Source: Mesorhizobium terrae (GTDB lineage: Bacteria; Pseudomonadota; Alphaproteobacteria; Rhizobiales; Rhizobiaceae). From it: a stretch of 64,000 nt of DNA. The notes under the pieces were generated by a model. The model saw nothing but the letters and a program-made list of their open reading frames with translations, was not told the DNA's origin and searched no databases. Made by a program: the position numbers and the translations under genes. Every line of letters starts with the position of its first letter. Position 1 is the stretch's first letter. The DNA lies in the NCBI RefSeq assembly GCF_008727715.1, contig NZ_CP044218.1:3365501-3429500 (forward strand). Reading direction: 5' to 3'. This document shows positions 30,011-43,174 of this stretch, piece by piece.

Positions 30011-31219
30011 TCAGGCAACCAGGTTTGCTATCCGTCTTGCGGAACCGAGGGCGAGGGTCCATCCAAGCATGCCGTGCCCGGCATTGATATAGAGACCGCG
30101 CATCCTGCGGGAGGGAGCGATGATCGGCCGGGAGGATGGCGTCATCGGGCGTTCGCCGGACCAGCGGACTTCTTCCGGCGGGCGGTCGAAGCAGGCAGGC
30201 AACACGGCGCTGGCGACCTCCCGCAGGATGCCGAACCGATCCGCGTCGAAGCCCGAGCCGGGCCGCTCGATGTCGGCAAGCCCTGCAACGCGCAGCCGTT
30301 GACCGATTGTTGCGAAGGCTAGTTTGCGCTTCACATCCGTCAAGCTGACACGCGGCGCTCCTTCCCGCCAAGGCACGGTCAGGGAATAGCCGCGCACGGG
30401 CTGGATTTCAGCGGCTTCGGGCAGGTCGGCGACCAGCGTATGGATCAACGGTCCCGCCGTGACGACCGCGGCATCGACGACAAGTGGATCGCGATCGGTA
30501 AGCCGTACCGCCGAGAGCTGTCCCTTGTGCTGATCGAATCCGGCCACCTTGCGTCCGAAGCATGCCGAAACCCGACCTTTGGACACCATGAAATCCGTCA
30601 GTTGACGGCAGAAGGCGACCGCGTCGCCAAGAGCGTCGCCGGGCGTGTAAACGGCGCCAGCGATTTCTCCCTGATAAGTCTTCAGGGCCGGCTCCACTTC
30701 TTCGGCTTCGCAGCGCGACAGGAGACGTTGATCGAAGCCAAGCCGCCGCTTGCGCTCGATGGTCAGCCGGGCCGCAGCAAGGCCCTTTGCGTCAGGATAA
30801 AGGTGCAGCTTGCCAGCGATGCGATAGTCGAAAGCAATTTCCGTCTCCGCCAGCAGCTTCGCCATTTCCCGGCGCGATTCATCGGCCAGTTGCAGGATCT
30901 CGCTTGTGTTGTTCCACCAGCGCCGGGCCGGCATGTTCGCCATGAAGCGCAGCCCCCAGACCAGGAAATCGGCATCAAGCCTCCAGCGAACCCGGAACGC
31001 CGGATCTCGGCCGGCGAGGATGGCCGGCAGATGCTTCAAAAGCGCGGGCGAGGCCATGGCATCGCCATAGGCCCAGGAAAGTTGGGCTGCATTGCCGGCG
31101 CTCGCCCCGCAACCCGGCTCTGCAGCCGCGTCGATCAGGATCACCTCATGATCGGCGCGAGCCAGCAGATAGGCCGACGCGACCCCGACCACGCCTGCGC
31201 CGACAACCGCAATTCGCAT
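30011..31219 (-). CDS. DadA-like FAD-dependent amino-acid oxidase/dehydrogenase
   Basis: A 402-residue FAD oxidoreductase of the DAO/DadA family, which oxidatively deaminates an amino acid or secondary amine to an imino acid. The dinucleotide-binding loop is at residues 5-19 (VVGAGVVGVASAYLLARADH), followed by GCGASAGNAAQLSWAY, the FAD-contact segment of DadA proteins. The C-terminus has GLYINAGHGMLGWTLALGSA. It is the last gene of a transporter operon and starts four bases after the amidotransferase-RidA fusion stop, so RidA could hydrolyse the reactive imine or enamine this oxidase makes. The exact substrate is unknown. Confidence 0.9.
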   Translation of the reverse strand: MRIAVVGAGVVGVASAYLLARADHEVILIDAAAEPGCGASAGNAAQLSWAYGDAMASPALLKHLPAILAGRDPAFRVRWRLDADFLVWGLRFMANMPARRWWNNTSEILQLADESRREMAKLLAETEIAFDYRIAGKLHLYPDAKGLAAARLTIERKRRLGFDQRLLSRCEAEEVEPALKTYQGEIAGAVYTPGDALGDAVAFCRQLTDFMVSKGRVSACFGRKVAGFDQHKGQLSAVRLTDRDPLVVDAAVVTAGPLIHTLVADLPEAAEIQPVRGYSLTVPWREGAPRVSLTDVKRKLAFATIGQRLRVAGLADIERPGSGFDADRFGILREVASAVLPACFDRPPEEVRWSGERPMTPSSRPIIAPSRRMRGLYINAGHGMLGWTLALGSARRIANLVA

Positions 31220-31223
31220 GGCC

Positions 31224-32438
31224 TCAGGCCTCTGCGCTGCTGAGGACGGCCGTCAGCTCGATTTCCACGGGCACGCCACGGGGCAGCGAGGCCACGCCAA
31301 CGGCGATCCGCGCATGTGGCCAGCATTCGGGAAACGCCTCGCGCAGCATTTCGGAAGCGCCATCGACGACCGCGCCATGCTGGGTAAAGTCCGGGGCTGC
31401 GGCGACGTATCCGGCGAGCCGTACGAACCCTTTCACCCGGTCGAGCCGGCCGGCGATGCGCTCCAATTGCGCCAGGGCATTGAGCAATGCCCAGCGTGCG
31501 CATTCGCGCCCTGCTTCTAGGGAGACGTCCTTGCCCAGATGGCCTGCCCTGAGGACAGCCTTGTCCTTGATCGGAACCTGCCCGGACACGGTCACGATAC
31601 CGCCGTTGCGGATCGCACCGACGAATGCGCCGGGGGGCGCGGCTGCTTCCGGCAGGCCAAGGCCGAGGGCATCGAGGCGTTTCCGAACGGCACAAGGGGC
31701 ACCGGATGCGGTCTTGCGGCGGGGACGCCTTGTGCTGCGTTCCACGAAATCGCGCAGGATCGCCTTGTCGAAGTCGGTCAGCCGATATTCGGGATGCCAT
31801 TGCACCCCCAGACAGAAGCCGCTCGTATTGCCCTCGAAGGCCTCGACGACGCCGTCCGGCGCCCGCGCCACGACACGAAACCGTTCGCCCTCCGTGAGGG
31901 CATGCCGATGCAGGCTGTTCACTTCGGCCGAGCCGCCGCCGAGAAGGCGAGCGAGATCGCTGGAGGCCTCGACTGTGACGCCATGGGCCAGGCGATCGGG
32001 AACTGCGCCTGGCATGTGTTCAACCGGTTCTCCGGCAGGCCGTGGCAGGCTGGTGACGAATGTGCCACCCAGCCATTCGCCGATCAGTTGCATGCCGTGA
32101 CAGACGCCGAGCAGCGGCTTTCCTGCTTCCAGCGTCTGCCGCACAAGCTCGCGTTCGAATTCACGCCGCTCCGGACTGGCCTGCTGGCCCGGTGCGGTGC
32201 CCGTGATCATCACGCCGTCGGCAAGTTCCAGCGTGGCGGCAATGTCGAGCGCTTCGTAGGGCAGGATCAGCGCGGTGCCGCCGGCCTCGGCTATCGCTTC
32301 GGCGTAATTCGCCCGAACGACATATTCGCGTTCGGTCCAGCCTTCGGCGGATAGCCTGAAGTCAGGCGTCATCAGGATGACGGGACGGCGGTTGGGCTGC
32401 CGGCACGTCGCGCCGCGATCATGCGTTGAGGTCGTCAT
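31224..32438 (-). CDS. Fusion: class-I glutamine-amidotransferase (PuuD-like) + RidA deaminase
   Basis: A 404-residue two-domain protein. Residues about 18-235 form a class-I amidotransferase/gamma-glutamyl hydrolase (PuuD type) with an intact triad: C113 (GVCHGMQ), H215 and E217 (VQWHPEYR). Residues about 250-400 form a RidA/YjgF domain with its key arginine R377 (PHARIAVGVASLPRG) and acidic VEIE near 391-394. A linker near 236-250 is basic. The two activities are usually on separate proteins. Neighbours are an amino-acid ABC transporter and a DadA-like oxidase. I infer hydrolysis of a gamma-glutamyl or amide bond and quenching of a reactive imine in one pathway. The ATG at 32438 is 22 bases after the permease stop. 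Confidence 0.9.
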   Translation of the reverse strand: MTTSTHDRGATCRQPNRRPVILMTPDFRLSAEGWTEREYVVRANYAEAIAEAGGTALILPYEALDIAATLELADGVMITGTAPGQQASPERREFERELVRQTLEAGKPLLGVCHGMQLIGEWLGGTFVTSLPRPAGEPVEHMPGAVPDRLAHGVTVEASSDLARLLGGGSAEVNSLHRHALTEGERFRVVARAPDGVVEAFEGNTSGFCLGVQWHPEYRLTDFDKAILRDFVERSTRRPRRKTASGAPCAVRKRLDALGLGLPEAAAPPGAFVGAIRNGGIVTVSGQVPIKDKAVLRAGHLGKDVSLEAGRECARWALLNALAQLERIAGRLDRVKGFVRLAGYVAAAPDFTQHGAVVDGASEMLREAFPECWPHARIAVGVASLPRGVPVEIELTAVLSSAEA

Positions 32439-32460: not shown

Positions 32461-33120
32461 TTAGCCGGCAGGGCGTACGAGCCGCCGCGAAAGAAGCGAG
32501 AACGGCCAGGCTATGAGGAAATAGCACAGCCCCACGGCCAGATAGATTTGAAGCGGCAGGAAGTATTCCGTCGCCATGGCCCGGCCGGTCAGCACCAGCT
32601 CATCCACCGTGATGAGCGAGGCGAGCGAGGAATCCTTGAGCAGCGAGACGAAGGTGACGATGAGCGGTGCGATGACGATGCGCACCACTTGCGGCAATAT
32701 GATCAGGGCAAAGCTCTGAAAGGGCGTGAAGCCGACGGCGAGCGCCGCCTCGCGCTGGCCCTTCGGGATCGCCACAAGGCCGGCGCGGAACAATTCCGCG
32801 ACCTGCGCCGCGAAGGCAAGTGCCAGCCCCAGAACCGCGCCTGTGAAGGCATCGAAAGTGATGCCGATGCCGGGCAGGCCGAAATAGAGCAGGAACAGGA
32901 TGGCGAGCAGCGGCACGCCGCGAACCACCGAGACATAGACCGTAGCGAAATGGCGCAGCGTCCGCGACCGCGCATTCCGGCACAGCGCCAACAACAGTCC
33001 GAACACCAGCGACAAGGTGAAGGCGCAACCTGAAAGCAGGGCGGTCGTGCCCATGGCCTTGACCAGAAGCGGAAGCCACTCCTTGCCGTATTCGAAATAA
33101 GGTTCGACGAAGCCGCTCAT
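32461..33120 (-). CDS. Polar amino-acid ABC transporter permease 2 (HisMQ type)
   Basis: A 219-residue inner-membrane permease with five helices and the EAA loop QREAALAVGFTPFQSFALII, which docks the ATPase. The N-terminal pattern (TTALLSGCAFTLSLVFGLLL) is typical of the HisM/GlnP family. It overlaps the upstream permease by four bases (ATGA), so the two are made together and probably form a heterodimer. Substrate unknown but an amino acid or amine by family and context. Confidence 0.94.
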   Translation of the reverse strand: MSGFVEPYFEYGKEWLPLLVKAMGTTALLSGCAFTLSLVFGLLLALCRNARSRTLRHFATVYVSVVRGVPLLAILFLLYFGLPGIGITFDAFTGAVLGLALAFAAQVAELFRAGLVAIPKGQREAALAVGFTPFQSFALIILPQVVRIVIAPLIVTFVSLLKDSSLASLITVDELVLTGRAMATEYFLPLQIYLAVGLCYFLIAWPFSLLSRRLVRPAG

Positions 33121-33776
33121 GCCTTCAGCCTCCCGTAGCGGCTTTCGAGGAAGCGGATCGCCTGCATCAGCGGCATGCCAAGGAGAAGATAGAGACCGGC
33201 CACCGTCACGTAGATCAGCGTGGTCTGGAAAGAGGACGTCACCATGGATCGCGCGTAGAACATGATTTCCGGCGCGGCGATGGCGGAGACGATCGATGTA
33301 TCCTTGAGTAGCTGCACTGCATAGTTGCCGAGCGGCGGAAGCGCGATGCGCAGCGCCTGCGGTGTCAGGATGTCGAAAATCGTCTGGAAGGGTGTGAAGC
33401 CGACCGCAAGCGCTGCTTCACGCTGGCCTTTCGGCAACGCTGCGAAGCCGGAGCGGAACAGGTCGCAGGTGACCGCCCCGCCGATCAGTCCGAGGCCGAG
33501 GATCGCCGCGACAATCGCGGACAATCTGAAGCCGATGCTCGCCAATCCGAAATAGAGGATGAACAGGTGGGTGAGCGCCGGGATGTTGCGCATGATCTCG
33601 CAATAGGCGTCGATCAGGAAATGAACCGGCCGCAGGCCGCCGAAAACGCGCAGAAGGGCGAGGCCGAAACCGAGAGCGACACCGAGCGCGAGCGATGCCA
33701 GCGTGACCAGAACGGTGACGCCGACCCCGGCGAGCAACCCTTCCAGCACCATGATGAAGGTCGACAGTCCGGACAT
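33117..33776 (-). CDS. Polar amino-acid ABC transporter permease 1 (HisMQ type)
   Basis: A 219-residue permease paralogous to the next gene, with the EAA loop QREAALAVGFTPFQTIFDIL and helix patterns of the GlnP/HisQ family (LIDAYCEIMRNIPALTHLFI). It begins 11 bases after the ATPase stop and overlaps the second permease by four bases. Confidence 0.94.
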   Translation of the reverse strand: MSGLSTFIMVLEGLLAGVGVTVLVTLASLALGVALGFGLALLRVFGGLRPVHFLIDAYCEIMRNIPALTHLFILYFGLASIGFRLSAIVAAILGLGLIGGAVTCDLFRSGFAALPKGQREAALAVGFTPFQTIFDILTPQALRIALPPLGNYAVQLLKDTSIVSAIAAPEIMFYARSMVTSSFQTTLIYVTVAGLYLLLGMPLMQAIRFLESRYGRLKA

Positions 33777-33787
33777 GGCGCGGGTCC

Positions 33788-34540
33788 TCAGTGCCGGATC
33801 TGTTTCAGGAAGGCCTGGGTTCTTGCCTCGCGAGGAGAGAGTATCAGCTCCCGCGCCGGCCCCTGCTCGACGATGGTGCCACCGTCGAGGAACATGACCC
33901 GGTCGGCGATGTCGCGGGCAAACGCGATCTCGTGGGTGACGATCAGCATGGTGCGCCCCTCGGCGGCCAGCTCCTCCATCACCTTCAGCACTTCATGCAC
34001 CAGCTCCGGATCGAGCGCGGAGGTCGGTTCGTCGAACAGCATCAGCTTGGGTTTCTGCGCCAGTGCCCGGGCAATCGCCACACGCTGCTGCTGACCACCG
34101 GAGAGCTCCAGCGGCGACGCATCGGCGCGATGGGTCATATGGACCTTGGCGAGCATTTCCAGCGCCAGCTCATGCGCTTCCCTTGCCGAAAGTCCGCGCA
34201 CCTTGCGGGCGGCGATCGCCACGTTCTCCGTCACCGAAAGGTGCGGCCAGAGATTGAAAAGCTGGAACACCATGCCCATTTCGGCCCGCTGCGGCGCGAG
34301 CTGACGATCGCTCATCGCCCGCCCGAGCTTGACGCCGATCCGCTCGCCATCCAGGTGGATTTCGCCGGCATTCGGCTTTTCGAGGAAGTTCAGGCAGAGC
34401 AGGCAGGTGGATTTTCCCGACCCCGAAGGGCCGATCAGCGCGATCTTCTCGCCGGCGGTCACCTCGAAATCCATTCCCTTCAGAACCTCGACCAGTCCGT
34501 AATTCTTGCGCAGGCCCGTGACGCTCAGCAGCGGGTTCAT
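33788..34540 (-). CDS. Polar amino-acid ABC transporter ATP-binding protein
   Basis: A 250-residue ABC ATPase: Walker A GPSGSGKST, Q-loop MVFQLFNLWPH, signature LSGGQQQRVAIARAL, Walker B LMLFDEPTSALDPE and the H-loop IVTHEIAFA. It energises the two permeases. I chose ATG 34540 (MNPLLSVTGLRK), which has GGGGAAC at fair spacing; ATG 34561 is an in-frame alternative. A long perfect hairpin separates it from the upstream binding-protein gene. Confidence 0.95.
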   Translation of the reverse strand: MNPLLSVTGLRKNYGLVEVLKGMDFEVTAGEKIALIGPSGSGKSTCLLCLNFLEKPNAGEIHLDGERIGVKLGRAMSDRQLAPQRAEMGMVFQLFNLWPHLSVTENVAIAARKVRGLSAREAHELALEMLAKVHMTHRADASPLELSGGQQQRVAIARALAQKPKLMLFDEPTSALDPELVHEVLKVMEELAAEGRTMLIVTHEIAFARDIADRVMFLDGGTIVEQGPARELILSPREARTQAFLKQIRH

Positions 34541-34567
34541 GCCGTTCCCCATTTTTGTCATTGAACA

Positions 34568-34667: not shown

Positions 34668-35549
34668 TCAGCCACCCGCCTTGCAGGAGGGCAGCTTGTA
34701 GTCGGCGGGGCGATCGACGCCGGCGCGGAAGTTCTCGCCGGCGGGCCTGTACCAGACATCGGCGGCCAGGCCGTAGCGGGCGCCTATCTCCTTCATCTCG
34801 CAGCCTTTCCACATGCCGCCGATGATGGCGTCCACCTTCTGGCGCAGATCGTCGTTCTTCTTGTTGAAGCCGTAGACGACCTGGCCGAGACCGGTGAGCA
34901 AGGGGAAATCCGCATTGCTGTCGGTGAAGGCGAGGAACTGCATGTTCCATTCGGGGTTTTTCTTGATCGCATACGACACGACGGGAGGATCGCCGATCAC
35001 GGCGTCGATGCGGCCCGCGATCAGGTCGCGCACGGCGGCGTCGGAGGTGTCGTAGAGAGAAAGCTCGAGGCCTTTGATCTTCTTGAGCTCCGGCACGAAG
35101 GAAAAGCCGGTGATGGTTCCGACCTTCTTGCCTTCGAGGTCGGACAGCTTGTCCCAGTTCGTCTTCGACGACTGCATGATGCCGTTCTTGAAGTAATGGA
35201 TCGGCTCGGAAAGCGTCATGATCTTGGTGCGCTTTTCCGTCCAGCCCATGGTGCCGAGCATGACGTCGACGCGGCCCGCTTCCACCGAAGCGATGGTGCC
35301 GGACCATTCCATCAGCGCCGGCTGGAGCTTGAGTCCCAGCTTGTCGGCGATCTTCTGCATGATCTCGCCGTCATAGCCGATCATCTTGCCGTCCTGCCAA
35401 CCGGAACCCGGCATGTCGCCAGTGAAGGCGACGGTCAGCTTGCCCTGCTCGACCAGTTCGAAAGCCTGCGCCAAGGGCGAGAATGCCAAGAAGCTCCCGC
35501 CTGCCAGCAGCGCACACACCGCCAGCCTTCTCGAAAGAGAAAGTGCCAT
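34668..35549 (-). CDS. Polar amino-acid ABC transporter substrate-binding protein
   Basis: A 293-residue periplasmic SBP_bac_3 protein. A signal peptide ends after SPLAQA; the mature part has TVAFTGDMPGSGWQDGKMIG, YDGEIMQKIADKLGLKLQPA and the cleft motif GRVDVMLGTMGWTEKRTKIM. It is the first gene of the minus-strand operon that continues through the ATPase, permeases, amidotransferase-RidA fusion and oxidase. The ligand cannot be deduced; the operon suggests an amino acid or gamma-glutamyl/amine compound. Confidence 0.94.
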   Translation of the reverse strand: MALSLSRRLAVCALLAGGSFLAFSPLAQAFELVEQGKLTVAFTGDMPGSGWQDGKMIGYDGEIMQKIADKLGLKLQPALMEWSGTIASVEAGRVDVMLGTMGWTEKRTKIMTLSEPIHYFKNGIMQSSKTNWDKLSDLEGKKVGTITGFSFVPELKKIKGLELSLYDTSDAAVRDLIAGRIDAVIGDPPVVSYAIKKNPEWNMQFLAFTDSNADFPLLTGLGQVVYGFNKKNDDLRQKVDAIIGGMWKGCEMKEIGARYGLAADVWYRPAGENFRAGVDRPADYKLPSCKAGG

Positions 35550-35720
35550 TTGTTCGATCCTTGAAATTATTGGTTCCCCTATCCGGCAGTCCTTGTTGCT
35601 CCGGATATCGCGTTTAACGAGGGGCAGTCTGGCATCGAAGACGAGGGCTGAATTGTAAAAAAAAGACTTTTTCTTTGAAAATCGGCGCGGTCATCCTATC
35701 GTGCGAGGAGGGGGGTAACC

Positions 35721-37236: not shown

Positions 37237-37839
37237 ATGCGAGGCGCGGCCCTTACCGTATTGGTCATCGACGAGAATCGGCTCCGAGCCTCGATCATCG
37301 AGGCAGGGCTGCGCGAGGCTGGTCACACCGAGGTGGTGCTTGTCGACGATGTGACCGGCATCGCCGCCCGCATCGCGGCACTTGAGCCGGATGTGATCGT
37401 CATCGACATCGAGAATCCCAACCGGGACATGTTGGAGAACATGTTCCAGCTCTCGCGTGCGGTGAAGCGACCCATTGCCATGTTCGTCGATCGCTCCGAC
37501 ACCGCTTGGATCGAGGCGGCGGTGGATGCCGGCGTCTCGGCCTATGTCGTTGACGGCCTGAAGAAGGAGAGGGTGAAGCCGATCCTCGACATGGCGATCA
37601 GCCGCTTTAATGCGTTTTCGCGGATGGAACGCGAACTCGAGGAAGCGCGCACCGAACTGGAAAGCCGCAAGACGGTTGAGCGCGCCAAGGGCATCCTCAT
37701 GAAATCGCGCGGGCTCTCCGAGCAGGAATCTTACGCCCTACTGCGCAAGACCGCCATGAACCAGAACCGCAAGATCAGTGACGTGGCGCAGGCCCTGGTT
37801 ACAACCGCGGGCCTGCTGGGCGCTGGAGACGATCAATGA
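37237..37839 (+). CDS. nasT: NasT, ANTAR-domain antiterminator of nitrate assimilation
   Basis: A 200-residue regulator: an N-terminal receiver-like domain with D57 at the phosphoacceptor position (VIVIDIENP), then a coiled linker and a C-terminal ANTAR RNA-binding domain (KTVERAKGILMKSRGLSEQE, SYALLRKTAMNQNRKISDVA). NasT binds two-hairpin leader RNAs and prevents termination; NasS holds it inactive until nitrate or nitrite binds. The gene overlaps nasS by four bases, and a matching leader RNA sits upstream of narK in this window. Start ATG 37237 with CGGAGCAGGA upstream; an ANTAR protein of this size is normal. Confidence 0.94.
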   Translation: MRGAALTVLVIDENRLRASIIEAGLREAGHTEVVLVDDVTGIAARIAALEPDVIVIDIENPNRDMLENMFQLSRAVKRPIAMFVDRSDTAWIEAAVDAGVSAYVVDGLKKERVKPILDMAISRFNAFSRMERELEEARTELESRKTVERAKGILMKSRGLSEQESYALLRKTAMNQNRKISDVAQALVTTAGLLGAGDDQ

Positions 37840-39074
37840 GCCCGGCCCATCAGATATCCGCTGGCTTCCTGCCGCTGCTCGACAGTGCCGTGCTGGTTGC
37901 TGCACGCGAACTGGGTTTCGCGGCCGACGAAGGCATCGACCTCGTTCTCACCAGGGAGAATTCCTGGGCAAGCATCCGCGATCGGCTCGCCGTCGGCCAT
38001 TTCAACGTCGCGCATATGCTGGCACCGATGCCGATCGCCTGCAATCTGGGCCTGACACCGCTCGCCGCGCGCACCATAGCGCCGATGGCGCTTGGCCTGG
38101 GCGGCAATGCGGTGACCGTCTCGCGCGACCTTTGGGACGAGATGTTGGCGCAGGATGCGGCCTCGGATTTCGACCCCCGATCCACCGGGGCAGCGCTGGC
38201 GGCCGTCGTGGTGCACCGCAAGGCGGCGGGCGGGTCGCCGCTGCGCTTCGGCGTCGTGCATCCCCATTCGGGCCATAACTACGAATTGCGCTACTGGTTT
38301 GCTGCCTGCGGCGTCGACCCTGATCGCGATATCGAGATCATCATCGTGCCGCCATCCTTCATGGCCGATGCACTCGGCGCCCGGCGCATCGACGGCTATT
38401 GCGTCGGTGAACCCTGGAACACGGCGGCGGTGGCGAAGGGCGTCGGACGCATCGTCACCACCAAGGCCAGGATATGGCGTTCCAGTCCGGAAAAGGTGCT
38501 GGGTGTCGCTGCCGAGTGGGCGGAGGCAGAGCCCGAGGCGCTGTCGGCGCTTTTGCGAGCTCTTTACCGCGCCGCCGCCTGGAGCGGCGACAGCGGCAAC
38601 CATGGCGAGCTGGCGGAACTGATGGCCGGGCCTGCTTATGTCGATTGTCCAGTCGAATGGCTGAAGCCGGCGCTCTCCGGACTGATCCAGACCGGCGACG
38701 GTGGCGAGGTTGTGACACCGGATTTCTTCGTGCCCCATGCCAAGGCCGCCACCTTTCCCTGGAAGAGCCACGCGCTCTGGTTCTACAGCCAGATGGCCCG
38801 CTGGGGACAGATCGAGGCCAACCCGGCCAACGAAGCGATCGCGCGCGAAACCTATCGTCCTGACCTCTACCGGCAGGCCTTGCGAGATGTTGGCGTGGCG
38901 TTGCCGGGAGCGAACGCCAAGGTCGAAGGTGCACTGGTCACCGAGACGCCGGTCGGTTCGGCCGGCGCCAGCCTCATTCTCGGACCGGACGGCTTCTTCG
39001 ATGGGGCGGTGTTCGATCCCGACCGCGTCGGGGACTACATTCAAGGCCAGCTTCTCGCCGAGCCAAAAGCCTAG
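37836..39074 (+). CDS. nasS: NasS, cytoplasmic nitrate/nitrite sensor
   Basis: A 412-residue protein resembling NrtA/CmpA nitrate-binding proteins (SAGFLPLLDSAVLVAARELG, NVAHMLAPMPIACNLGL, FGVVHPHSGHNYELRYWFAA, GYCVGEPWNTAAVAKGVGRI) but without signal peptide or lipobox. That is the hallmark of NasS, the cytoplasmic sensor that sequesters NasT. It is coupled to nasT by a four-base overlap. Absence of adjacent NrtB/NrtC transporter genes supports the sensor call. It is followed by about 300 bases of regulatory sequence leading to narK. Confidence 0.93.
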   Translation: MSPAHQISAGFLPLLDSAVLVAARELGFAADEGIDLVLTRENSWASIRDRLAVGHFNVAHMLAPMPIACNLGLTPLAARTIAPMALGLGGNAVTVSRDLWDEMLAQDAASDFDPRSTGAALAAVVVHRKAAGGSPLRFGVVHPHSGHNYELRYWFAACGVDPDRDIEIIIVPPSFMADALGARRIDGYCVGEPWNTAAVAKGVGRIVTTKARIWRSSPEKVLGVAAEWAEAEPEALSALLRALYRAAAWSGDSGNHGELAELMAGPAYVDCPVEWLKPALSGLIQTGDGGEVVTPDFFVPHAKAATFPWKSHALWFYSQMARWGQIEANPANEAIARETYRPDLYRQALRDVGVALPGANAKVEGALVTETPVGSAGASLILGPDGFFDGAVFDPDRVGDYIQGQLLAEPKA

Positions 39075-39212
39075 GCGTTCTTTTGCGCTGCATCATTTTT
39101 GTGCATTGCGATATGCCATTTGCCGGAAGTTTTGCCAGCGCCGGACGATGCCACGCGCGTCGATAATGCCAATGATTGTTGATTTCATTGCATAAAACTC
39201 TGCCGATCAAAA

Positions 39213-39230
39213 CTGGCACGCATCCTGCTT
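39213..39230 (+). promoter_or_regulatory. Sigma-54 (RpoN) promoter of the nitrate assimilation operon
   Basis: CTGGCACGCATCCTGCTT has the -24 GG (39215-39216) and -12 GC (39227-39228) exactly ten bases apart, matching the TGGCACG-N4-TTGC consensus apart from C for T at the -12 block. The predicted transcript would start near 39240, at the base of the first regulatory hairpin. Nitrogen control through NtrC is implied, although no clear NtrC site was identified upstream. Confidence 0.8.
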
Positions 39231-39242
39231 TGTAACAAGCGA

Positions 39243-39286
39243 GGCCCAAGGCTGGGCCACGAATTCTGCGTCCAACGAAGGGCGCA
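39243..39286 (+). ncRNA. Two-hairpin ANTAR (NasT) target in the narK leader RNA
   Basis: Hairpin 1 (39243-39258) has stem GGCCC/GGGCC and hexaloop AAGGCT; hairpin 2 (39267-39286) has stem TGCGTCC/GGGCGCA and hexaloop AACGAA. Both loops have A at position 1 and G at position 4, the signature recognised by ANTAR domains, and they are eight bases apart. A terminator follows seven bases later. NasT binding should favour this fold and let transcription continue into narK. Confidence 0.85.
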
Positions 39287-39292
39287 CCAGGC

Positions 39293-39365
39293 AAGGCTGC
39301 CGTTCAGGTCACCACGCGATCCCGGATGTACGGACGCGCGGCCTGTTCGGCAGCCTTTTTGTTTT
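39293..39365 (+). terminator. Leader terminator controlled by NasT
   Basis: A 10-bp stem AAGGCTGCCG / CGGCAGCCTT with an inner CAGG/CCTG pairing, followed by TTTGTTTTC. It lies between the hexaloop hairpins and the narK start, so it would stop transcription unless antiterminated. Confidence 0.85.
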
Positions 39366-39408
39366 CAATCGCAGAGCGGCGCTTTCGATGCCGAACACGG
39401 AGCGAGCA

Positions 39409-40704
39409 ATGGGCGTATCTTTTCGACAAAGCCGGGATCCGGCAGCCACGCATGCGCTAACCCTATCCACGCTGTCGTTCACGGTGTGCTTTGCCGTGTG
39501 GACGATCTTTTCGATCATCGGCATACGCATCAAACAGGAGCTCGGGCTTTCCGAAACCGAATTCGGTCTGCTTGTCGGCACGCCGATCCTCTCCGGCTCG
39601 CTTGCCCGCATTATGCTTGGCGTGTGGACCGACCGTTTTGGCGGCCGTCTGGTCTATTCGGCAATCATGCTGGCGGCGGCGATCGCCACCTTTCTGCTGG
39701 CCTTCGCACATACTTACCCGCAGATGCTGATCGCAGCACTCGGCGTTGGTCTGGCGGGGGGTTCCTTCGCTGTCGGGGTTGCCTATGTTTCGCGCTTCTA
39801 CCCGGCTGAGAAGCAGGGCACGGCGCTCGGCATATTCGGCGTCGGCAATGTCGGCGCGGCAATCACGAAATTCCTGGCGCCCTTTGTGATGCTGGCCGTT
39901 GGCTGGCAGGACGTGGCGATCATCTGGGCGTCCGTGCTCGGCTTCATGGCGTGCATCTTCTGGTTCAGCGCCGAAGACGATCCGGTGATCCGGCAGCGGC
40001 GCGTCACCGGCGCCAATCCCCCACGCAACTTTCGGGCCGAATTCGAGCCCTTGAAGGATGTCCGCGTCTGGCGTTTCGCGCTCTACTATTTTTTCGTCTT
40101 CGGCGGCTTCGTCGCCCTGGCACTCTGGCTGCCGCGCTACCTGATCGGCGTCTACGGCTTCGACATTGCCACCGCAGGCATGGTTGGTGCCGCCTATTCG
40201 GTCCCGGCCTCGATCTTCCGCGCCTATGGCGGTGTGTTGTCGGACAGGATCGGCGCACGCACGGTGCTTTACTGGACCTTCGCCGTGTCGGCGGTGTGTT
40301 GCGCCGTGCTGGCCTTGCCCGCGGCGGATTTCACGGTGCGCGGCATCAGTGGTCCGGTCTCCTTTCATTTCGAGATCGGCTGGATCGCTTTCGTCGCCAT
40401 AGCCTTCGTGCTCGGCTTCTTCATGGCTGTCGGCAAGGCCGCGGTCTACAAGCACATCCCCGTCTACTATCCCGGCAATGTCGGTGCCGTCGGTGGCCTC
40501 GTCGGCATGATCGGCGGGCTCGGCGGCTTCGTCCTGCCGATCGCCTTCGGCGCGCTCAACGACCTGACCAACGTCTGGTCGAGCTGTTTCATGCTGCTTT
40601 TCGTCGTCGTGGCCGCATGCCTTGCCTGGATGCATCTCGCCATCCTTCGGATGGAGCAAGCACGCGCGCTGGCCGAACGGGCCACCGTCTCCCCAGCGGA
40701 ATAG
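39409..40704 (+). CDS. narK: NarK/NasA-type nitrate/nitrite MFS transporter
   Basis: A 431-residue MFS transporter of the nitrate/nitrite porter family with the signatures FAVWTIFSIIGIRIKQELGL, GIFGVGNVGAAITKFLAPFV and the second nitrate motif GNVGAVGGLVGMIGGLGGFV. It imports nitrate for assimilation, as the operon shows. I prefer the ATG at 39409 because GGAGCGAGCA precedes it; an in-frame ATG at 39388 lacks a ribosome-binding site. First gene after the NasT-controlled leader; nirB starts 19 bases after its stop. Confidence 0.92.
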   Translation: MGVSFRQSRDPAATHALTLSTLSFTVCFAVWTIFSIIGIRIKQELGLSETEFGLLVGTPILSGSLARIMLGVWTDRFGGRLVYSAIMLAAAIATFLLAFAHTYPQMLIAALGVGLAGGSFAVGVAYVSRFYPAEKQGTALGIFGVGNVGAAITKFLAPFVMLAVGWQDVAIIWASVLGFMACIFWFSAEDDPVIRQRRVTGANPPRNFRAEFEPLKDVRVWRFALYYFFVFGGFVALALWLPRYLIGVYGFDIATAGMVGAAYSVPASIFRAYGGVLSDRIGARTVLYWTFAVSAVCCAVLALPAADFTVRGISGPVSFHFEIGWIAFVAIAFVLGFFMAVGKAAVYKHIPVYYPGNVGAVGGLVGMIGGLGGFVLPIAFGALNDLTNVWSSCFMLLFVVVAACLAWMHLAILRMEQARALAERATVSPAE

Positions 40705-40723
40705 TCGAGTGGAGCCCCAGACT

Positions 40724-43174
40724 ATGTCAGAGAAACTCGTCATCATCGGCAACGGCATGGCGCCAGGCCGCATGCTGGAGCATCTGCTCGAGGCTGCACC
40801 CGGCCGCTACCAGATCACCATCTTCAACGCCGAACCGCGCGTGAACTACGACCGCATCATGCTGTCGCCCGTTCTGTCGGGCGAGAAGGACTATGAGGAA
40901 ATCGTCATTCACGGCGATGGCTGGTACATCAAGCATGGCATCGTGCTCTACAAGGGCCACAAGATCGTCGCCATCGATCGAAGCGCCAGGATCGTCACCT
41001 CCGACAAGGGCGTGACCGAGCCCTATGACAAGCTTGTCGTCGCCACCGGCTCGGTGCCCTTCATCATCCCGGTGCCCGGCAGGGATCTGCCCGGCGTGCT
41101 CTCCTATCGCGATCTGGACGACGTCGGCGCCATGCTTCTCGCCGCGCAGTCGCGCGACAGGGCGGTGGTGATCGGTGGCGGGCTGCTCGGACTTGAGGCG
41201 GCCGCCGGCCTGAAGGAGCGCGGTATGGACGTCACCGTGCTGCATGTCATGCCAACACTGATGGAACGTCAGCTCGATCCGGCCGCCGGCTATCTGCTCC
41301 AGAAGCAGCTGGAGGCGAGGGGCATCACGGTCAGGACGAAGGCGAACACCAGGCAGATCGTCGGCGCCGGCAAGGTGCAGGGTGTCGAGCTCGACACCGG
41401 CGAGATCATCCCGGCCACGCTGGTGGTGATGGCCGTCGGCATCCGACCGAATGTCGGCCTCGCCAGGGAAGCTGGGCTCGAGGTCAATCGCGGCATCGTC
41501 ACCGACGATTGCATGCGGACATCCGACCCGGATATTTTCGCGCTCGGCGAATGCGTCGAGGTTGGCGGCCATGTCTACGGCCTTGTCGCGCCGCTCTACG
41601 AAATGGCAAAGGTGGTGGCCGCGAAACTGGCCGATGCCGACGACAGGCGCTTCACCCATTCCGATACGCCCACGAAGCTCAAGGTCACCGGCATCGATCT
41701 CTATTCGATCGGCGATTTCGCCGATGGCGAGGATCGCGAGGAGATCATCCTGCGCGATGCCTCGGCCGGCGTCTACAAACGCGTGATCCTGCAGGACAAC
41801 AGGATCATCGGCACGGTGCTGTTCGGCGAGACGGCGGACGGCGCCTGGTTCAACGATCTCAAGAAGAAAGAAGTCGACATCTCCGAGATGCGCGACACCC
41901 TGATCTTCGGGCAGGCCTTCCAGGGGGGCGCTTCTACGGACCCTCTGGCGGCCGTTGCGGCTCTGGCGGATGATGCGGAAATCTGCGGCTGCAACGGCGT
42001 CTGCAAGGGAGAAATCGTTTCCGCCATTGGCGAAAAGGGACTGACGTCGCTGGACGAAGTCCGCGCGCACACCAAGGCGTCGGCCTCGTGCGGCTCATGC
42101 ACCGGCCTGGTCGAGAAGGTGATGGCGCTGGTGCTGGGCGATACTTACAACCCGGCCGCCGTGCAGCCGATGTGCGGCTGCACTGAACTCGGCCATGACG
42201 AGGTACGCCGGCTGATCAAGGCGAAAGGCCTGAAGACCATCCCGGCTGTGATGCAAGAACTGGAGTGGAGCACCTCCTGTGGCTGCGCGAAATGCCGGCC
42301 GGCGCTCAACTACTATCTCGTCGCCGATTGGCCAAATGAATATGCCGACGATTACCAATCACGCTTCATCAACGAGCGCGTTCACGCCAACATCCAGAAG
42401 GACGGCACCTATTCGGTGGTGCCGCGCATGTGGGGCGGGATGACTTCGGCGGCCGAGCTGCGCGCCATCGCCGATGTGGTCGACAAGTTCGCCATTCCGG
42501 CGGTGAAGGTCACCGGCGGCCAGCGCATCGACATGCTGGGCATCCGAAAGGAAGACCTGCCTGCAGTCTGGGCCGATCTCGGCAAGGCCGGCTTCGTCTC
42601 GGGTCATGCCTATGCCAAGGGGCTGCGCACGGTGAAGACGTGTGTTGGTACCGACTGGTGCCGCTTCGGCACGCAGGATTCGACCGGCCTCGGCATCCGC
42701 ATCGAAAAGTTCATGTGGGGTTCGTGGACGCCGGCCAAGGTGAAGATGGCGGTCTCCGGCTGTCCGCGCAATTGCGCGGAGGCAACCTGCAAGGATGTCG
42801 GCGTGGTGTGCGTGGACTCCGGCTACGAGATCCATTTCGCAGGTGCTGCCGGCCTCGATATCAAGGGCACGGAAGTGCTCGGTATGGTGCGCACCGAGGA
42901 CGAAGCGCTGGAGGCGATCGTAGCGCTCGTGCAGATGTATCGCGAGCAGGCCCGTTACCTCGAGCGTATCTACAAATGGGCAAAACGCGTCGGCCTCGAG
43001 GAGATCCGCCGCCAGATCATGGCCGATCCCGACAGGCGCCAAGGCTATTTCGAACGCTTTGTCTTCAGCCAGAAATTCGCTCAGGTCGATCCGTGGTCGG
43101 AGCGTGTCTCGGGCAAGGACAAGCACGAGTTTCGACCGATGGCGGAGACCGATTTCCAACAGGCGGCGGAGTGA
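40724..43174 (+). CDS. nirB: Assimilatory nitrite reductase large subunit NirB
   Basis: An 816-residue siroheme enzyme that reduces nitrite to ammonium with NADH. N-terminal FAD/NAD domains carry IIGNGMAPGRMLEHLL and VVIGGGLLGLEAAAGLKERG. Two BFD-like [2Fe-2S] cysteine sets follow (CGCNGVCKGEI with SCGSCTGLV; CGCTELG with SCGCAKC). The siroheme/[4Fe-4S] ligands are intact: C-x5-C in TCVGTDWCRFGT and C-x3-C in SGCPRNCAEATC. Start ATG 40724 (AGTGGAGCCCCAGACT upstream). Cytoplasmic. No siroheme synthase gene is adjacent, so siroheme must be made from elsewhere. Confidence 0.96.
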   Translation: MSEKLVIIGNGMAPGRMLEHLLEAAPGRYQITIFNAEPRVNYDRIMLSPVLSGEKDYEEIVIHGDGWYIKHGIVLYKGHKIVAIDRSARIVTSDKGVTEPYDKLVVATGSVPFIIPVPGRDLPGVLSYRDLDDVGAMLLAAQSRDRAVVIGGGLLGLEAAAGLKERGMDVTVLHVMPTLMERQLDPAAGYLLQKQLEARGITVRTKANTRQIVGAGKVQGVELDTGEIIPATLVVMAVGIRPNVGLAREAGLEVNRGIVTDDCMRTSDPDIFALGECVEVGGHVYGLVAPLYEMAKVVAAKLADADDRRFTHSDTPTKLKVTGIDLYSIGDFADGEDREEIILRDASAGVYKRVILQDNRIIGTVLFGETADGAWFNDLKKKEVDISEMRDTLIFGQAFQGGASTDPLAAVAALADDAEICGCNGVCKGEIVSAIGEKGLTSLDEVRAHTKASASCGSCTGLVEKVMALVLGDTYNPAAVQPMCGCTELGHDEVRRLIKAKGLKTIPAVMQELEWSTSCGCAKCRPALNYYLVADWPNEYADDYQSRFINERVHANIQKDGTYSVVPRMWGGMTSAAELRAIADVVDKFAIPAVKVTGGQRIDMLGIRKEDLPAVWADLGKAGFVSGHAYAKGLRTVKTCVGTDWCRFGTQDSTGLGIRIEKFMWGSWTPAKVKMAVSGCPRNCAEATCKDVGVVCVDSGYEIHFAGAAGLDIKGTEVLGMVRTEDEALEAIVALVQMYREQARYLERIYKWAKRVGLEEIRRQIMADPDRRQGYFERFVFSQKFAQVDPWSERVSGKDKHEFRPMAETDFQQAAE

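What the first reader, a model, noticed from the sequence alone, without database searches (positions are those of the whole stretch)
31224..32438. Fusion of a PuuD-like amidotransferase with a RidA deaminase in an amino-acid transporter operon
Seen: one 404-residue frame with a complete class-I amidotransferase triad (C113, H215, E217) followed by a RidA domain with its key arginine (R377). Known: PuuD-type enzymes split gamma-glutamyl amides, and RidA hydrolyses reactive imines/enamines made by amino-acid oxidases. The next gene is a DadA-like oxidase, preceded by a complete amino-acid ABC importer and a divergent GlxA-type regulator. Inference: a dedicated uptake-and-catabolism pathway for a gamma-glutamyl or N-substituted amino compound in which the fusion couples amide hydrolysis to imine quenching. 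I do not recall this fusion as a described pathway.
Basis: partly seen in the sequence, partly recalled or inferred. Interest (0 to 1): 0.72.

Follow-up and report, generated by a model that had tools for sequence, protein, structure and literature searches.

The report
Fused amide-splitting and imine-quenching enzyme
Some root-associated bacteria carry a gene that joins an enzyme resembling those that cut glutamate off small molecules to one resembling those that disarm reactive imines, beside a gene for a D-amino-acid-oxidising enzyme, which hints at an undescribed way of using D-amino-acid conjugates as food.

Summary
The fusion is real: one 404-residue frame on the MINUS strand, a PuuD-like amidotransferase domain followed by a Rid1-type imine-deaminase domain, catalytic residues kept. 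It is no assembly error: 100 of the 120 listed database relatives carry both domains. In 14 of 14 fused loci examined a DadA-like oxidase gene follows directly; 12 of 14 keep the whole operon (divergent GlxA regulator, binding protein, ATPase, two permeases, fusion, oxidase). In nine further loci the three enzymes are separate neighbouring genes, seven of them behind an M20 peptidase gene. Thirty of 30 ordinary PuuD-like loci lack the partners. Both domains carry residues that set this gene set apart from ordinary relatives.

Best explanation: the amidotransferase domain frees an amino acid, probably a D-amino acid, from an imported gamma-glutamyl-type conjugate; the DadA-like enzyme oxidises it; the Rid1 domain hydrolyses the imine. 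Gene content and order are shown; substrate and reaction order are inferred, and only one unfused locus has further D-amino-acid genes. The DadA-Rid partnership is known (DadA/DadY). I did not find the three-enzyme unit or its fusion in the papers searched. New variant of a known kind.

The parts
31224..32438 (-). Fusion gene, 404 aa: PuuD-like class-I amidotransferase plus Rid1-type domain
31719..32438 (-). Amidotransferase part, about residues 1-240 (C113, H215, E217)
   Evidence: boundary approximate
31239..31691 (-). Rid1 part, about residues 250-400 (R377, E392)
   Evidence: boundary approximate
30011..31219 (-). DadA-like FAD-dependent oxidase, 402 aa
   Evidence: Pfam DAO 3.2e-57; best NCBIfam D-amino acid dehydrogenase, 321 of 383 bits, below cut-off
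32461..33120 (-). Amino-acid-type ABC permease 2
33117..33776 (-). Amino-acid-type ABC permease 1
33788..34561 (-). ABC ATPase (start at 34561 or 34540; the longest frame begins at 34759)
34668..35549 (-). Family-3 (amino-acid-type) substrate-binding protein
35650..35688 (.). Conserved element in the divergent promoter region, possible regulator site
   Evidence: alignment of 14 intergenic stretches; judged by eye, kept in 13 and not in L012
35721..36785 (+). Divergent GlxA/AraC-type regulator
   Evidence: DJ-1_PfpI plus HTH_18; best NCBIfam GbdR, 151.8 of 480 bits

Best explanation
The operon takes up and breaks down a gamma-glutamyl-type conjugate of an amino acid, most likely of a D-amino acid. 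The importer brings the conjugate in. The first domain of the fusion cuts the gamma-amide with a Cys-His-Glu triad and frees the amino acid. The DadA-like enzyme oxidises this to a 2-imino acid. The Rid1 domain hydrolyses the imine to a 2-oxo acid and ammonia. The fusion thus holds the step before and the step after the oxidase. Shown: gene content, order, kept catalytic residues, constant company of the oxidase gene. Inferred: substrate, D-configuration, order of reactions, any physical coupling.
For: Both domains with kept catalytic residues. Oxidase gene directly after the fusion in 14 of 14 fused loci and after the separate genes in 9 of 9; 0 of 30 ordinary PuuD-like loci have Rid1 or DadA nearby. 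Triad members share residues absent from the ordinary relatives compared. Published: DadA releases imino-alanine, which a Rid protein hydrolyses (PMC9714295, abstract and passages); Rid genes cluster with FAD amine oxidases (PMC4433059); Rid1 proteins hydrolyse amino-acid imines (PMC5619798). The best solved structures for the first domain include SpuA, one with a glutamyl-thioester, and PuuD. One unfused locus, L014, adds 4-hydroxyproline epimerase, a second DadA-like gene, an M19 dipeptidase and a peptide importer. The binding protein aligns its Arg and Asp with those of AncQR (their role is recalled).
Against: No substrate is shown. The first domain and the oxidase both miss the equivalog or subfamily cut-offs of PuuD and DadA, so specificity may differ. 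Only 1 of 9 unfused loci (L014) has further D-amino-acid genes; L011 lies among unrelated genes and the plasmid loci among polyketide-type, transposase or mixed genes. Rid1 proteins PA0814 and ACIAD3089 did not act on iminoarginine made by DauA. The three trees do not agree on where Vreelandella L011 belongs.
Confidence: 0.48

Rival explanations
1. The amidotransferase domain acts last, as an omega-amidase. The oxidase turns D-glutamine or an N-substituted glutamine into an imine, Rid1 makes 2-oxoglutaramate or its N-substituted form, and the fused domain splits that amide to 2-oxoglutarate. The fusion then joins consecutive steps.
For: Joining consecutive steps is the usual logic of fusions (general knowledge). 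PA0814 (Rid1) lowered the signal from glutamine-derived imine from 18 to 1. An amino-acid-type importer suits glutamine analogues.
Against: C26 enzymes of known function that match here take gamma-glutamyl compounds. In seven unfused loci an M20 peptidase gene precedes the triad, which suits a conjugate.
Confidence: 0.2
2. The substrate is a cell-wall fragment or other gamma-D-glutamyl peptide, cut by the fused domain, with the D-amino acids going to the oxidase.
For: M20 or M19 peptidase genes beside unfused triads and Opp-type importer genes in L014 and near L103.
Against: The fused operon has a small amino-acid-type importer (12 of 14) and no peptidase gene between importer and oxidase.
Confidence: 0.13
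3. It is a polyamine or alkylamine route of the Puu/Spu kind: a gamma-glutamylated amine is split and the oxidase acts on an amine or aldehyde-forming step.
For: PuuD and SpuA are the nearest solved structures of the first domain.
Against: No gamma-glutamyl-amine synthetase gene lies in the operon; the oxidase resembles D-amino acid dehydrogenase most; the importer is amino-acid type, not polyamine type.
Confidence: 0.1
4. The Rid1 domain is only a trimer-forming scaffold or general detoxifier, and its imine chemistry is not part of the pathway.
For: Rid proteins typically assemble into trimers (PMC4433059, passage).
Against: R377 is invariant in 30 of 30 and E392 kept in 29 of 30; Rid1 persists as a separate gene next to the oxidase in nine loci.
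Confidence: 0.07

Closest known systems
DadA/DadY alanine catabolism of Pseudomonas (PMC9714295; abstract and passages seen)
   Same: A D-amino acid dehydrogenase gene beside a Rid gene, with the Rid protein removing the imine released
   Different: DadY is Rid2, not Rid1; no amidotransferase, no fusion and no importer in the locus as described in the passages read
PuuD / SpuA gamma-glutamyl amide hydrolases
   Same: C26 fold, Cys-His-Glu triad
   Different: Below the PuuD equivalog cut-off; CHGMQ or CNGMQ at the nucleophile, where 30 ordinary relatives have CGG and the genome's own paralogue CRG; fused to Rid1
Rid1 subfamily (PA0814, ACIAD3089; PMC5619798, passages seen)
   Same: Nearest solved Rid structures with Atu1372 and SO_1960; the arginine kept
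   Different: LPRG[VA]PV[ED] motif not found in the two paralogues of this genome; fused to an amidotransferase
DauA plus Rid2/Rid3 in vitro (PMC5619798, passages seen)
   Same: Imine set free by a D-amino acid dehydrogenase is taken by Rid proteins
   Different: There the two Rid1 proteins were inactive on iminoarginine; no amidotransferase

Membership tests
Peptidase C26 / class-I amidotransferase | Pfam score above cut-off | tested here: met
   137 bits against 20.5
Peptidase C26 / class-I amidotransferase | Cys-His-Glu triad | tested here: met
   C113, H215, E217 invariant in 30 of 30
PuuD equivalog (NF008471) | Score above the curated cut-off | tested here: not met
   59.6 of 266 bits
PuuD equivalog (NF008471) | Hydrolyses gamma-glutamyl-GABA | not testable with these tools
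   needs enzyme assay
Rid1 subfamily | Closest relatives are Rid1 proteins | tested here: met
   Atu1372, PA0814, SO_1960, ACIAD3089 are the best solved Rid matches; PA0814 and ACIAD3089 are called Rid1. No tree with all Rid subfamilies was built
Rid1 subfamily | Arginine needed for imine hydrolysis | tested here: met
   R377, 30 of 30, aligned with the Arg of Atu1372
Rid1 subfamily | Imine deaminase activity | not testable with these tools
   needs semicarbazide assay
D-amino acid dehydrogenase DadA (NF001933) | Score above the curated cut-off | tested here: not met
   321 of 383 bits, yet the best match of the library
DadA/DadY-type partnership | Oxidase and Rid genes adjacent | tested here: met
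   14 of 14 fused and 9 of 9 unfused loci
DadA/DadY-type partnership | Imine released by the oxidase is hydrolysed by the Rid part | not testable with these tools
   needs the semicarbazide assay

The most novel reading that the evidence does not exclude
An undescribed route, found in plant-associated bacteria, for gamma-glutamyl conjugates of D-amino acids (such as the gamma-glutamyl-D-alanine reported from pea seedlings), in which one bifunctional enzyme brackets a D-amino acid dehydrogenase: it makes the oxidase's substrate and destroys its reactive product. The separate-gene version with M20 peptidases would be a sister route for N-acylated, for example malonylated, D-amino acids.
Probability: 0.3. 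Interest if true: 0.7.

Novelty: new variant of a known kind. Interest (0 to 1): 0.48.

Why it matters
It would give a Rid1 protein a fixed place in a pathway, beside one oxidase and one amidase, and it predicts a nutrient class (D-amino-acid conjugates) for rhizobia and related bacteria, some of which carry the genes on large plasmids. The gene set is small and several hosts are cultured strains, so it can be tested directly.

Tried and rejected
Assembly error: rejected. Relatives with both domains come from many contigs and three complete plasmids annotate one gene. Chance neighbourhood: rejected. Recent import by composition: no support, operon GC 0.639 and window 0.640.

Single origin of the fusion: not settled. 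The amidotransferase tree puts the 30 fusions on one side of a branch, weakly (82/49), with Vreelandella L011 next to them (99/96); the Rid1 tree puts L011 among the fusions (81/92); the DadA tree puts it with L102 and L103 (96/93). L011 is a long branch. L012 was labelled fused in the DadA tree although its state is unclear. A later split in Vreelandella is possible; that its two genes share a frame is no argument, since the same holds for L094 and L107, 3 of 9, as chance would give.

Standalone P0107-type proteins, about 64% identical to the first domain: looked for in 394 family genomes (cut-off 1e-45) and in PLSDB (cut-off 1e-40); the matches were six and four places that are all fused loci known, so their context stays unknown. 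Structure: mean pLDDT 80.2, pTM 0.59; the arrangement of the two domains is not interpreted. Regulator and binding-protein matches name no ligand. The second protein-fold job, pdb_via and two protein searches were not used.

Literature: 0 papers held RidA with 'gamma-glutamyl-gamma-aminobutyrate hydrolase' and 'fusion'; 4 papers and 10 (listings, four of these read in passages); 0 held Atu1372; 16 held three of six pathway terms (12 listed, listing only); 2 held RidA and PuuD, of which PMC5320631 was read in passages (in separate sections) and the other seen in the listing only. PMC4921024 names RidA only in its reference list. One search was set so that one term sufficed and says nothing. The library lacks most subscription papers.

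Full report
What is there. On the minus strand, 32438 to 31224, lies one 404-residue frame. Residues 30-232 match Peptidase_C26 and class-I amidotransferases, residues 254-398 the YjgF/Rid families. The AlphaFold model (pLDDT 80.2, pTM 0.59) finds SpuA, PuuD and Lin1909 as best solved structures for the first half and SO_1960, Atu1372, PA0814 and ACIAD3089 for the second. The same proteins head the sequence search. PA0814 and ACIAD3089 are called Rid1 in PMC5619798 (passages).

Active sites. C113, H215, E217 and R377 are invariant in 30 of 30 aligned fusions, the window and 29 that I chose from the 120 listed hits. E392 stands 15 residues after R377 and is D in one of the 30; papers name R105 for RidA and E120 for TdcF, so the same spacing is suggested but rests on numbering from two proteins. 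At the nucleophile the fusions read CHGMQ (28 of 30) or CNGMQ (2 of 30); the seven unfused members that I compared read CHGMQ (1) or CNGMQ (6) (L096 and L105 were not compared). All 30 ordinary alphaproteobacterial relatives fetched read CGG there, and 25 of 30 read VNSAHHQ where the window reads VNSLHRH (the cruder pattern match had read another spot in one of them). The genome's other PuuD-like protein reads CRGIQ. In the Rid1 part 30 of 30 fusions and 7 of 7 unfused members carry LPRG[VA]PV[ED]; the two Rid1-like paralogues of this genome carry LPLNAPVE and LPGNITVE. Both halves thus look like subfamilies tied to this gene set, as far as this small comparison goes.

The operon. Order on the minus strand: binding protein, ATPase, permease, permease, fusion, DadA-like oxidase. 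The permease genes overlap by 4 bases, the fusion starts 22 bases after the permease and the oxidase 4 bases after the fusion. A GlxA-type regulator is divergent. The oxidase follows the fusion in 14 of 14. The full importer precedes it in 12 of 14; in L010 the first permease matches only from residue 78, and L103 lacks it but has Opp-type permease genes about 3.6 kb or more away on the other strand. A GlxA homologue is present in 14 of 14, downstream of the oxidase in L103. In 13 of 13 other fused loci the Rid1 part is closer to the window's than the amidotransferase part is. Named hosts: Rhizobium, Neorhizobium and Sinorhizobium strains and plasmid pTiCFBP4996 of Agrobacterium leguminum.

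Distribution is patchy: 2 of 397 genomes of the order, 1 of 41 relatives and 6 of 394 genomes of the family match at 1e-60, the window's genome counted each time and the draws overlapping. In PLSDB 9 records matched at 1e-40: four fused, five with separate genes.

Unfused relatives. In nine loci the amidotransferase, Rid1 and DadA-like genes are separate neighbours: L011 (Vreelandella), L014 (Ensifer), and L094-L096, L098, L104, L105 and L107 on rhizobial plasmids; the oxidase comes next in 9 of 9. L104 and L105 are near copies, and in L096 the amidotransferase frame looks damaged (191 aa, 29% identity). The seven plasmid loci have an M20 peptidase gene before the triad. L014 alone adds Opp-type importer genes, a second DadA-like oxidase, 4-hydroxyproline epimerase (569 bits, cut-off 376), a hydro-lyase of the D-glutamate-cyclase Pfam family and an M19 dipeptidase. 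The neighbours of L011 that I scanned give no such hint. In the Devosia draft genome L012 the two domains lie in different frames, with a further frame change inside Rid1; I count it as neither. Control: from a search with an unfused amidotransferase, 163 of 367 class genomes matched at 1e-32, and the 30 best loci, those fetched, have neither Rid1 nor DadA in the 1.5 kb flanks (three loci are shorter).

Mechanism. DadA of Pseudomonas releases imino-alanine, and the Rid2 protein DadY hydrolyses it and adds competitive fitness (PMC9714295, abstract and passages). Rid genes cluster with FAD amine oxidases (PMC4433059, passages). Rid1 proteins hydrolyse several amino-acid imines, PA0814 most completely the glutamine-derived one, but the two tested did not act on iminoarginine (PMC5619798, passages). 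A C26 amidase before such a pair gives the simplest pathway: conjugate, amino acid, imine, oxo acid. The stress on D-amino acids rests on the resemblance of the oxidase to DadA and on L014. It fits a report, seen only as a title in a reference list, of gamma-L-glutamyl-D-alanine synthesis in pea seedlings, and the text on malonylated D-amino acids in the same review (PMC7432710, passages). The reverse order, with the amidase last on 2-oxoglutaramate, cannot be excluded.

Binding protein. It is family 3 and aligns with glutamine- and arginine-type proteins; its TEKR arginine and IDAVIGD aspartate line up with the same residues of AncQR. That these hold the amino-acid head group is recalled. This suits any ligand with a free alpha-amino-acid head, gamma-glutamyl conjugates included.

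Conclusion. The fusion is a stable gene of a small, patchily spread operon. The parts are familiar; the three-enzyme unit and its fusion were not found in the searches named. I rate it a new variant of a known kind.

Noticed in passing
window 35650-35688: A/T-rich element with GTC-like repeats about 20 bases apart, kept by eye in 13 of 14 aligned GlxA/binding-protein intergenic stretches (not in L012): a possible regulator site.
   Followed up: partly
L094, L095, L096, L098, L104, L105, L107: M20 peptidase, amidotransferase, Rid1 and DadA-like genes in a row on rhizobial plasmids; beside polyketide-type genes in L094 and L098, and with aspartate ammonia-lyase and glutathione-dependent formaldehyde genes a few kb away in L104 and L105.
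   Followed up: partly
L011 9947-11167; also L094, L107: Unfused amidotransferase and Rid1 genes in the same frame, parted by a stop and few bases.
   Followed up: partly
proteins P0102, P0106, P0107: Standalone 237-residue relatives of the fusion's first domain in Rhizobium; gene context not found.
   Followed up: partly
L010 8123-9256: The first permease matches only from residue 78 and the ATPase frame runs on to 377 residues: a possible deletion.
   Followed up: partly
L106 7893-9191: Novosphingobium plasmid with a DadA relative (43%) but neither of the other two partners in the stretch at the cut-off used.
   Followed up: no
window 37237-43174: Beyond the regulator, frames that look like nitrate assimilation (ANTAR-type regulator, binding protein, transporter, nitrite reductase), judged by eye from the translations, no search made.
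   Followed up: no
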